A DNA stretch of 64,000 bases, taken from positions 1 to 64,000 of the forward strand of contig JAJEHQ010000024.1 of the NCBI GenBank assembly GCA_022823625.1. The letters are read 5' to 3'. The notes below the pieces were generated by a model. It had not been told where the DNA came from, ran no database searches, and worked only from the letters and a program-made list of their open reading frames with translations. The stretch comes from Gammaproteobacteria bacterium (GTDB taxonomy: Bacteria > Pseudomonadota > Gammaproteobacteria > Arenicellales > JAJDZL01). Numbering within the stretch: position 1 is the first letter of the stretch; the number at the start of each line of letters is the position of its first letter. Positions 50,442 to 53,447 of the stretch are shown piece by piece. The translations under genes and the position numbers were made by a program.

Positions 50442-50747
50442 TCCCGAGGTGCCGGCGAATAAACAGTCCTCCTTTTGCCGATCGATATCAGTTCCGAAGT
50501 CGGTAAGAATGCCAGGAATCCAGTCGGATGAAAGCAATTGAAGATCGGTCCGAGAGACGAAAGTGTGTTTCAACTGGATAAAGGATGTACGGATTGTGAC
50601 AGATACTTCTGCCAAGCAGACGCTTGTCGCCAGTTGGAACTCGCAGAAGTTCAGCGACGAGGTGATTGTGTGGTGGTCTGACCCATCAAACCAAACTGTC
50701 GTTTCCGGTAAAGTAAAATCAATTCCAACTGCACGTTGACTTCGACC

Positions 50748-51677
50748 ATGAATAATCGGAAATTTCCAATCGGCATTGCGGATTTTCGCTCAATTCGCTC
50801 TGATGACTATTATTACATCGACAAGACCCCGCATATCGAAAGACTGATCGGCCAGGGCCGGTATTACTTCCTGTCGCGCCCGCGCCGTTTCGGCAAAAGC
50901 CTGCTGCTTGATACGATGCTGGAACTGTTCGAGGGCAGCGAGCCGCTTTTTCGAGGACTTTACATACATGATCGCTGGGACTGGTCAACACAGTATCCCA
51001 TCGTGCGCCTGAGCTTTAATGCAGAGTACAGCAGGCCTGGCGTTTTGGAAGAAAATGTCAAGGTCCAACTTGAGAATCTTGAAATCAAGCACGGCTTGTC
51101 AGATGGCTACGATTCGACGAATTTGCACGGATCAAATCGATTTGCAAGACTGCTGCACAATCTCCATGCGAAAACAGGAAAACAGGCCGTCGTCCTGATA
51201 GACGAGTATGACGAGCCTGAGGTGATGGAATACCTGAACGGATTTTCGAAATTCCCGGATGTCGCACAGATCTTCCGCATTCATCGCCATGTCAAACACT
51301 ATAAAAAAGGCGTGGTGACAAAAACCACAGACGAAGTCGCTGTCGGCTTTACGTCACTGCCGGCTGACCGGGCGAATCCAAAGAGTCTTCTGGATTTGAA
51401 CCGCCGCCATTGGACGATAGAATCGGTGCATCATGTACTTGACAGCCTGAAGACCTGGCAGGAAGATCATCTGCTGATTCGCAAAGGCAACGGACCTGAG
51501 AATCTGACCGCGCTGCGCCGGTTTGCGATTGCAGTGATCAAGCGTCATTCGAAAAAAGTTGCATCAACAATCCGCAAACTCAAATGCGATGTCCGCCTGC
51601 TTTTGGATTACTTGTGTCTGACTGAAAACACCCGGCGCAGGAGACGGGCGGTGGAACCTGCGAGTGCTGCATGCTGA
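50748..51677 (+). pseudogene. Truncated AAA-ATPase-like gene fused in frame to a transposase tail
   Basis: The 309-codon frame is a chimera. Residues 1-157 are the front of an AAA-ATPase-like/PDDEXK_9-type protein, with F-P-I-G-I-A-D-F, Y-Y-I-D-K-T, the nucleotide-binding R-P-R-R-F-G-K-S-L-L-L and the V-V-L-I-D-E-Y-D-E-P box. Intact homologues run past 500 residues. At the point where D-E-Y-D-K-P-I would continue, the sequence changes to an ISAs1-like transposase C-terminus. The frame stays open through the join, so a fusion protein could be made but both functions should be lost. Confidence 0.78.
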
Positions 51678-51981: not shown

Positions 51982-52096
51982 TCGGCGGCAAATTGCGGCT
52001 TTGTAACGCTGAGCGCGGCATAAGGTCGTTTCAGATTCTGAACACCTGAACTTCATCACTGCTGAATTTGAGGGGTGCGATTTAAATCACACCGGG
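51982..52096. other. Spacer between IS remnant and Fic repeats
   Basis: About 115 bases with no gene or clear signal, becoming AT-rich toward the repeat block. Confidence 0.35.
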
Positions 52097-52275
52097 ATTA
52101 AGCATGGCTTAACAACAAACGGAAAACGACATTATAATTAAGGATTACACCAAAATGCTTAATAGCGGAATGTGTTATTAAGCATGGCTTAACAACAAAC
52201 GGAAAACGGCACCGTAATTAATGATAAATCAAAAATATTTAATAGTGTCTTTCGCTATTAAGCATTGCTGAATAA
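52097..52275 (+). repeat. 80-bp tandem repeat with palindromes, upstream of fic
   Basis: Units begin at 52097, 52177 and 52257, exactly 80 bases apart. The first 32 bases of units 1 and 2 are identical; the remaining 48 are similar but diverged. Unit 3 keeps about 19 recognisable bases before running into the Fic ribosome site. Units 1 and 2 start with ATTAAGCATGGCTTAA, holding the perfect palindrome TTAAGC-ATG-GCTTAA. Further inverted pairs span the junctions (ATGCTTAATA with TATTAAGCAT; TTAATAG with CTATTAA). A TATAAT is at 52133-52138. Likely a promoter/operator array for the Fic gene 11 bases downstream. Confidence 0.75.
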
Positions 52276-52286
52276 TCGGGGAATTT

Positions 52287-53447
52287 ATGAAACGTCAACA
52301 GACAGGTTATTTTGATACTACATCCATGGGAGGAGAACAGGTAAGAGCTTTTGTTCCTGATCCTTTACCGCCGAAAGATGAACTGGACTTCAAATATTTA
52401 CAGCATTCGCTGGACAGTGCAAATTTCGCAATTGGGCGGCTGGATAGTGTAACGAGCATTCTACCTGAACCCTGGCTGTTTCTCTATGCATATATCCGAA
52501 AAGAGGCTGTGCTTTCGTCGCAAATTGAAGGAACACAATCCACGCTGTCAGATCTCTTGCTATTTGAATTGAATCAAGCCCCAGGAGTGCCTCTGGACGA
52601 CGTGACTGAAGTTTCCAACCACGTGTCCGCCCTAGAACACGGAATTCGACGCATGAGAGAGGATGATTTCCCACTCTGTAATCGTCTTATCCGGGAGGTT
52701 CACGAAAAATTATTGTCTTCAGGCCGAGGAAGTAAAAAATTACCCGGCGAATTCCGACGTTCTCAGAACTGGTTGGGAGGCAAACGCCCGGGTAAGGCTC
52801 GTTTTGTACCACCACCAACCCATAAAGTCGAAGACTGTATGTCTGATCTAGAACGTTATTTGCACGCCCCCGAAAGCGGATATTCGGTTCTTATTCGCGC
52901 TGGATTATCTCATGTTCAATTTGAGACAATTCATCCTTTTCTAGACGGTAATGGACGAGTTGGTCGCTTACTCATCGCTTTGCAATTGTGCAACGAAGGT
53001 CTATTGAGTGAACCGATTTTATATCTCAGTTTGTATTTCAAAAAAAATCGAAGTGACTATTATTCATTGCTTAATGTCGTAAGGCAGCGTGGTGACTGGG
53101 AGGCCTGGCTGGAATTTTTTCTCGAAGGTATCACTAAAACATCAACCAGTGCTTTTTCGGTCGCCATACGACTTAATTCACTTTTCAATACCGATTCCGC
53201 ACGAATTCGAGATGGCGCACGCTTCATGTCTTCGTCCTTGCTTGTACACCAGGCACTACAATTACGTCCAATTTCAACAATAAAAAGTATCGCTCAGCAA
53301 ACCCATCTTTCGGTCCCTGCAGTTACGAATGGAGTGTATGCTCTTGAACAACTTGGAATTGCTTCTGAAATCACAAGCAAAAAAAGAAACCGTGTTTATG
53401 CTTATGACCAATACATCTCTATCTTAAATGAAGATATTGATGACTAA
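52287..53447 (+). CDS. Fic-family AMP-transferase with N-terminal inhibitory motif
   Basis: A 386-residue Fic protein. The active-site motif H-P-F-L-D-G-N-G-R-V-G-R begins at H216 and is complete. The inhibitory helix motif (S/T)-x3-E-(G/N) appears as S77-S-Q-I-E81-G82, so this is a class II, self-inhibited Fic. An N-terminal Fic_N region (residues 20-100) and a C-terminal winged-helix-like part (about residues 320-365, T-H-L-S-V-P-A-V-T-N-G-V) complete it. Such enzymes transfer AMP to Ser/Thr/Tyr of target proteins. The C-terminal helix-turn-helix makes self-binding to the upstream repeats plausible. It is a lone gene next to an IS remnant. Confidence 0.9.
   Translation: MKRQQTGYFDTTSMGGEQVRAFVPDPLPPKDELDFKYLQHSLDSANFAIGRLDSVTSILPEPWLFLYAYIRKEAVLSSQIEGTQSTLSDLLLFELNQAPGVPLDDVTEVSNHVSALEHGIRRMREDDFPLCNRLIREVHEKLLSSGRGSKKLPGEFRRSQNWLGGKRPGKARFVPPPTHKVEDCMSDLERYLHAPESGYSVLIRAGLSHVQFETIHPFLDGNGRVGRLLIALQLCNEGLLSEPILYLSLYFKKNRSDYYSLLNVVRQRGDWEAWLEFFLEGITKTSTSAFSVAIRLNSLFNTDSARIRDGARFMSSSLLVHQALQLRPISTIKSIAQQTHLSVPAVTNGVYALEQLGIASEITSKKRNRVYAYDQYISILNEDIDD

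What the first reader, a model, noticed from the sequence alone, without database searches (positions are those of the whole stretch)
52097..52290. Exactly spaced 80-bp repeat array controlling a self-inhibited Fic gene
Units begin at 52097, 52177 and 52257. Each begins with ATTAAGCAT and the first two carry the palindrome TTAAGC-ATG-GCTTAA; further inverted pairs bridge the units. The Fic enzyme has both an inhibitory motif and a C-terminal helix-turn-helix-like region, so it could bind the array and limit its own expression, with AMPylation state as a switch. The diverged halves of the units against the fully conserved first 32 bases suggest selection on the palindrome segment.
Basis: partly seen in the sequence, partly recalled or inferred. 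Interest (0 to 1): 0.6.

Follow-up and report, generated by a model that had tools for sequence, protein, structure and literature searches.

The report
Conserved self-binding operator of Fic toxin
The repeats are a doubled version of a DNA control site that sits, at nearly base-pair-exact spacing, before related Fic (AMP-transferring, toxin-like) genes in many bacterial phyla, and its letters change together with the Fic protein's own DNA-reading helix, so the toxin very probably switches down its own gene.

Summary
Units start at 52097, 52177 and 52257, exactly 80 bp apart. The true period is 40 bp: a short palindrome alternates with a 31-bp inverted repeat (52135-52165, 52215-52245). Upstream of 76 non-redundant Fic homologues from many phyla, 55 carry a three-half-site operator (forward-reverse-forward) about 73 bp before the start, against a mean of 4.1 in shuffles. 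52 of the 55 share one of two geometries (32/41 or 31/40 bp). The half-site sequence changes together with the recognition helix of Fic's own C-terminal winged HTH. Residue 344 = Pro goes with A at half-site position 7 in 36/36 loci, against 2/11 when it is not Pro. A second, separate search gave 8/8 non-Pro loci without A. Even SoFic-type antiphage Fics, with other half-sites, keep the 40/41-bp spacing. The window's genus carries this operator duplicated, around a TTAACA-18-TATAAT promoter. Best explanation: the class II Fic represses its own promoter by binding the array. Autorepression by a Fic-HTH protein is known (CccR); I found no account of the family-wide operator or its code in the open library. 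"AMPylation state as a switch" has no support here. No binding was measured.

The parts
52097..52115 (.). Short palindrome 1 (ATTAAGCATGGCTTAACAA); its right arm overlaps the promoter -35
52109..52138 (+). Predicted sigma-70 promoter TTAACA-18-TATAAT (11 of 12), inside the array; -35 lies in short palindrome 1, -10 at the edge of long inverted repeat 1
   Evidence: 3 promoter-like sites found in the region, 3.9 expected by chance, so weak on its own; this is the best site and the only one on the + strand
52135..52165 (.). Long inverted repeat 1 (core ATTAAGGAT-N9-ATGCTTAAT at 52137-52163)
52177..52195 (.). Short palindrome 2 (identical to 1)
52215..52245 (.). Long inverted repeat 2 (core ATTAATGAT-N9-ATATTTAAT at 52217-52243); half-sites 1 and 2 of the family-conserved operator, 31-bp span
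52257..52275 (.). Short palindrome 3 (ATTAAGCATTGCTGAATAA); half-sites 3 and 4 of the family-conserved operator, repeat distance 40
52287..53447 (+). fic gene: Fic_N + Fic + C-terminal winged HTH, 386 aa, SoFic-like
52515..52532 (+). Class II inhibitory motif S77-S-Q-I-E81-G82
   Evidence: invariant columns S77, S78, I80, E81, G82
52932..52967 (+). FIC catalytic motif HPFLDGNGRVGR (H216-R227)
53226..53435 (+). C-terminal winged HTH domain (residues about 314-383)
   Evidence: AlphaFold2, pLDDT mostly 91-95 here
53313..53351 (+). Recognition helix, residues 343-355; residues 343 and 344 at its N-terminus co-vary with the operator half-site

Best explanation
The array is the autoregulatory operator of the downstream class II Fic AMP-transferase. 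The protein's C-terminal winged HTH inserts the N-terminal end of its recognition helix into half-sites of the form YTATTNANNNTT. Half-sites are laid out as forward-reverse-forward(-reverse) with centres about 20, 21 and 10 bp apart, so Fic dimers can load along one stretch of DNA that covers the fic promoter and block transcription. Fic levels therefore limit Fic expression, as expected for a toxin that harms the cell if it leaks. In this genus the ancestral module (one long plus one short repeat, 80 bp) has been duplicated in exact 80-bp register, giving 2.5 modules and five paired sites at 40-bp steps, probably for tighter or more cooperative repression. Shown: the repeats, the conserved geometry, the operator/helix covariation, the restriction to fic promoters in the genus. 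Modelled: the fold. Inferred: physical binding, repression rather than activation, dimer loading, promoter position, the benefit of duplication.
For: Half-sites are 6-7 times enriched upstream of 76 non-redundant homologues (71 forward and 64 reverse, against 10.9 and 10.6 in shuffles). Spacings are sharply fixed: forward-forward 41 (15 loci) or 40 (4), reverse-forward 16 (29), forward-reverse 25 (19) or 24 (6), each with a shuffled expectation at or near 0. A motif-independent geometry search finds the operator in 55/76 loci, against a mean of 4.1 (max 7) in shuffles, 8/76 inside the gene, 7/68 far upstream and 7/75 downstream. After register correction only two geometries dominate, 32/41 (37 loci) and 31/40 (15). 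Covariation: operator against recognition helix, given the rest of the protein, partial Mantel r = 0.32, P = 0.0002; recognition-helix windows rank 2-4 of 354, and column 344 ranks first of 289. Residue 344 Pro versus half-site base 7 = A: 36/36 against 2/11, Fisher 4e-8, with about eight separate non-Pro switches on a tree built without the HTH, seven of them with a changed base 7. In a second set from class-level genomes, 8/8 non-Pro loci lack A. SoFic equivalogs with a different half-site (TCGACATAT) still repeat at 40 bp in 6/10, against 0.1 in shuffles. The exact long repeat is present only where the gene is. The 80-bp duplication register recurs in another lineage, L037. Precedent: CccR represses itself through promoter palindromes (PMC9755527); E. 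coli Sofic is toxic on leaky expression (PMC12249575).
Against: No binding or expression data. 21 of 76 loci did not reach the operator score, including one Gemmatimonadetes clade (L053, L054, L070, L096), and some starts and contig edges are uncertain. Partial Mantel does not fully remove phylogeny, and two windows outside the HTH (residues 73 and 39) also rank in the top five. The predicted promoter is one of 3 found where 3.9 are expected. CccR's spacing (10-bp arms, N26) differs from this operator. The long and short repeats have different centre spacing, so a single dimer mode does not explain both.
Confidence: 0.82

Rival explanations
1. The sites are the operator of a different regulator (a host transcription factor or a defence-island repressor such as RptR) that controls fic from outside.
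For: Array-type promoters bound by a separate repressor control other defence loci (RptR, three direct repeats; PMC12255303).
Against: The half-site tracks Fic's own recognition helix, including matched switches at residue 344. The site is found only with the gene in this genus. Neighbouring genes differ from locus to locus, and in the window the flanking genes are a degenerate ORF and an opposite-strand hydrolase.
Confidence: 0.06
2. The inverted repeats act in the fic leader RNA (hairpins, attenuation or translational control) rather than as protein-binding DNA.
For: The repeats are inverted and most would lie in the 5' leader of the predicted promoter at 52109-52138.
Against: The third half-site is a direct repeat at fixed 40/41 bp, which an RNA hairpin does not need. 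The same bases recur on both strands as a motif, and covary with the HTH.
Confidence: 0.04
3. The extra copies in this genus are a neutral tandem duplication with no function beyond the single operator module.
For: Units 1 and 2 are identical over 32 bp including spacer bases outside the half-sites, which looks like recent duplication or gene conversion.
Against: Array arms and exact 40/80-bp register are kept in all three genus members with the gene although their spacers differ, and a -80 duplication occurs independently in L037. This rival concerns only the extra copies; the single module is conserved across phyla.
Confidence: 0.08

Closest known systems
CccR of Yersinia pseudotuberculosis (FIC + C-terminal HTH, T6SS effector; PMC9755527)
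   Same: Fic with C-terminal HTH that represses its own gene by binding inverted repeats at its promoter
   Different: One inverted repeat AGATAATCAT-N26-ATGATAATCT (46 nt) instead of forward-reverse-forward half-sites with 40/41-bp repeats; CccR is a secreted effector with a back-to-back dimer; no repeated module was seen in the passages read
SoFic / EcSofic antiphage Fic (PDB 3EQX, 3ZCN; PADLOC SoFic; PMC12249575)
   Same: Closest solved fold, class II inhibitory helix, C-terminal winged HTH; SoFic-type genes carry an operator with the same 40/41-bp spacing
   Different: Below the NF046030 equivalog cut-off (158 against 550 bits); different half-site (TCGACATAT); PMC10628234 states that DNA binding by SoFic had not been shown
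CbFic2 of Coxiella burnetii (PMC10628234, PDB 8CIL)
   Same: Fic enzyme with HTH that binds DNA; DNA binding alters (de)AMPylation activity
   Different: Only random DNA was tested and no specific operator is known; weaker fold match (TM 0.55)
Autoregulated toxin-antitoxin operators (AbiEi and similar)
   Same: Toxin locus repressed through repeated inverted repeats at its promoter (AbiE in PMC7319586, abstract)
   Different: There a separate antitoxin is the DNA-binding partner; here toxin-like enzyme, inhibitory helix and DNA-binding domain are in one polypeptide

Membership tests
Class II Fic AMP-transferase | N-terminal inhibitory motif (S/T)xxxE(G/N) | tested here: met
   S77-xxx-E81-G82, invariant in 44 homologues
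Class II Fic AMP-transferase | FIC motif HPFx(D/E)GN(G/K)R | tested here: met
   HPFLDGNGRVGR, H216-R227, invariant apart from position 225
Class II Fic AMP-transferase | AMPylation activity | not testable with these tools
   needs biochemistry
SoFic antiphage system | Full-length match to the SoFic profile and fold | tested here: met
   PADLOC SoFic E = 5e-116 over residues 18-382; Foldseek top hit 3ZCN TM 0.77
SoFic antiphage system | NCBIfam NF046030 equivalog cut-off (550 bits) | tested here: not met
   158 bits; a relative, not the SoFic equivalog
SoFic antiphage system | Protection against phage | not testable with these tools
   needs plaque assays
CccR-type self-repressing Fic | C-terminal HTH | tested here: met
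   AlphaFold2 winged HTH, recognition helix 343-355
CccR-type self-repressing Fic | Inverted-repeat operator at own promoter | tested here: met
CccR-type self-repressing Fic | Operator geometry of two 10-bp arms with N26 | tested here: not met
   31/32-bp inverted repeat plus third half-site at 40/41 bp
CccR-type self-repressing Fic | Measured DNA binding and derepression in a deletion strain | not testable with these tools
   covariation only

The most novel reading that the evidence does not exclude
The operator array is more than a brake on transcription. DNA-bound Fic dimers are held in one enzymatic state (as DNA binding alters CbFic2 activity), so the chromosomal array works as a built-in antitoxin or sensor: loss, occupation or damage of the operator during phage attack both derepresses and releases the AMP-transferase.
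Probability: 0.1. Interest if true: 0.8.

Novelty: new variant of a known kind. Interest (0 to 1): 0.58.

Why it matters
SoFic-type Fic proteins are a widespread single-gene antiphage system whose C-terminal domain has had no proven DNA target, and whose control before infection is an open question (PMC12249575, PMC10628234). The data here give an operator consensus, a spacing rule near base-pair accuracy, and a concrete recognition code (residues 343 and 344 against half-site positions 4-5 and 7). Together these make autoregulation of the whole family directly testable and let operators be predicted from protein sequence.

Tried and rejected
CRP/cAMP control of fic: a CRP-like box (TGCGATTTAAATCACA, 52076-52091) sits 61.5 bp before the predicted start of transcription, but the window holds 3 such boxes where 3.0 are expected, the genome shows no Pfam Crp HTH match and no other of the 76 loci has one. 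Rejected. Control of a restriction system: tempting because several homologues follow hsdM, but N6_Mtase is the upstream neighbour in only 7/52 and HsdS the downstream neighbour in 6/52; the window's copy is solitary. Rejected as the general role. A regulon elsewhere in the genome: no other exact site. Mobile-element ends or iterons: no element boundary or replication gene was seen at the array and the family-wide position is fixed about 73 bp before the start codon; not tested further. One analysis error was corrected: the first window ranking was spoilt by undefined values and was redone. A first pass of the second set missed minus-strand loci and was redone.

Full report
Observation. The repeats are as described: starts at 52097, 52177 and 52257, spacing 80 and 80, the first two identical for 32 bases, with TTAAGCATGGCTTAA perfect twice and degenerate once. 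The array ends 11 bp before the fic start codon at 52287.

The gene. The 386-aa product carries Fic_N and Fic domains, the class II inhibitory motif S77-xxx-E81-G82 and a canonical FIC motif, invariant across 44 homologues apart from one variable position in the FIC motif. AlphaFold2 (pLDDT 84.8) places a winged HTH at the C-terminus with recognition helix 343-355. The closest solved structures by fold are SoFic 3ZCN/3EQX and M. marinum 7CB8 (by sequence). PADLOC's SoFic profile matches at 5e-116, but the NCBIfam SoFic equivalog cut-off is not reached (158 of 550 bits). So it is a SoFic-like class II Fic, not SoFic itself.

Family-wide operator. Homologues were gathered by protein similarity only, so the set is not biased toward any DNA motif. 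Upstream of 76 non-redundant members from Proteobacteria, Gemmatimonadota, Chloroflexi, Acidobacteria, Firmicutes, Planctomycetes and others, half-sites YTATTNA/TNAATAR occur 71 and 64 times, against about 11 each in dinucleotide shuffles. Their spacing is nearly exact: forward-to-forward 41 or 40, forward-to-reverse 25 or 24, reverse-to-forward 16, reverse-to-reverse 30 or 31. A search by geometry alone, with no motif assumed, finds the three-half-site operator in 55/76, against a mean of 4.1 (max 7) in shuffles and 7-8 in control regions inside, upstream and downstream of the gene. After register correction two geometries account for 52 of 55: span 32 with repeat 41, or span 31 with repeat 40. 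The window belongs to the second. In the 32/41 set the aligned consensus reads TATTAAAG...TATccTTTAATAA...TTATTcAAG, and in several loci -35-like and -10-like boxes lie in the repeat (inspection), so a bound protein would cover the promoter.

Who binds it. Different lineages use different half-sites, and these follow Fic's recognition helix. Loci with F, Y, V, I or L at residue 343 mostly have TATT (exceptions include L105, L078, L112 and L092). The alphaproteobacterial SAPT/SPPT helices go with CAAAGAAAGGAT. At residue 344, Pro goes with A at half-site position 7 in 36/36 TATT-type loci, while Ala, His, Gln or Lys go with T or C in 9/11 (Fisher 4e-8, not corrected for phylogeny). On a tree built without the HTH I count about eight separate non-Pro switches, seven of them with a changed base 7. 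Controlling for distance in the rest of the protein, operator distance still correlates with recognition-helix distance (partial r = 0.32, P = 0.0002). Column 344 ranks first of 289 and recognition-helix windows rank 2-4 of 354. Partial Mantel tests are liberal under phylogeny, and two windows outside the HTH also rank high, so the matched switches are the stronger argument. A second set from a separate search of class-level genomes agrees: 8/8 non-Pro loci lack A, and of the Pro loci five have A; the three Pro loci without A (L125, L133, L142) have no TATT-type operator.

Reach. SoFic equivalogs over the NCBIfam cut-off (L145-L154), with about 30% identity to the window's protein, carry a different half-site (TCGACATAT) but the same 40-bp direct-repeat distance in 6/10, against 0.1 in shuffles. 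More distant SoFic-like genes peak at 40 and 41 as well. The geometry therefore seems older than the half-site sequence.

The array in this genus. All three genus members with the gene keep about 2.5 modules in 40/80-bp register though spacers differ. The exact long repeat is found nowhere else in those genomes and not in the three members without the gene. Upstream extra modules occur in 6 of 55 operator loci, against 0 in a control; four of the six have one at -79 or -80 bp, including L037 from another lineage. A promoter TTAACA-18-TATAAT (52109-52138) lies inside the first module with both hexamers overlapping half-sites; as a bare scan result it is weak (3 found, 3.9 expected).

Mechanism. 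The simplest reading is negative autoregulation: Fic dimers occupy the ladder of half-sites over the promoter and cap Fic synthesis. This fits CccR, a Fic-HTH effector shown to repress its own gene through promoter inverted repeats (PMC9755527), and EcSofic, which could not be cloned under a single lac operator, apparently because leak is harmful (PMC12249575). Extra modules would tighten repression or add cooperativity; this is inference. The claim that AMPylation state is the switch is not supported by anything here; the nearest precedent is that DNA alters CbFic2 activity (PMC10628234), and that paper also states that DNA binding by SoFic had not been demonstrated.

Novelty. Autorepression by a Fic-HTH protein is known, so the kind is known. 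A family-wide operator with fixed geometry, a half-site code readable from the recognition helix, and an array form of it were not found in the open-access library; subscription papers and preprints were not searchable, and recent SoFic PDB depositions (9TB0, 9TC4 and others) may relate to unpublished or unheld work.

Limits. Everything is sequence and model evidence; no binding, transcription start or repression was measured. 21 of 76 loci were below the operator threshold, and some of these have uncertain starts. Many loci come from metagenome assemblies.

Noticed in passing
window 50736-51677: The ORF upstream of the array looks like a chimera or pseudogene: a Predicted AAA-ATPase N-terminal part (PF09820) runs in frame into a piece of an ISAs1-type DDE transposase, suggesting insertion and decay next to the fic locus.
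   Followed up: partly
window 52076-52091: CRP-like box TGCGATTTAAATCACA centred 61.5 bp before the predicted transcription start of fic; at chance frequency in the window, absent from other loci, and no Pfam Crp HTH match in the genome.
   Followed up: yes
L076, L083, L097, L099, L108, L109 upstream flanks; L049, L051: In a minority of homologues the operator-fic unit follows directly after an hsdM-like or hsdS-like gene of a type I restriction system (reading; N6_Mtase 7/52 upstream, HsdS 6/52 downstream), with fic keeping its own operator.
   Followed up: partly
L053, L054, L070, L096: A Gemmatimonadetes clade with recognition helix SAPT/SGPT lacks the operator at the usual place; repeated CGTTAG-type motifs lie further upstream and may be a shifted or altered version.
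   Followed up: no
L075 about -215 to -135 and L055 about -220 to -150 relative to the start: A second copy of the operator, in L075 with the first codons of the gene, lies upstream, which looks like a duplicated promoter segment.
   Followed up: no
L145-L154 upstream regions: SoFic equivalogs carry TCGACATAT half-sites also repeated at 30 and 70 bp, indicating more half-sites than three.
   Followed up: partly
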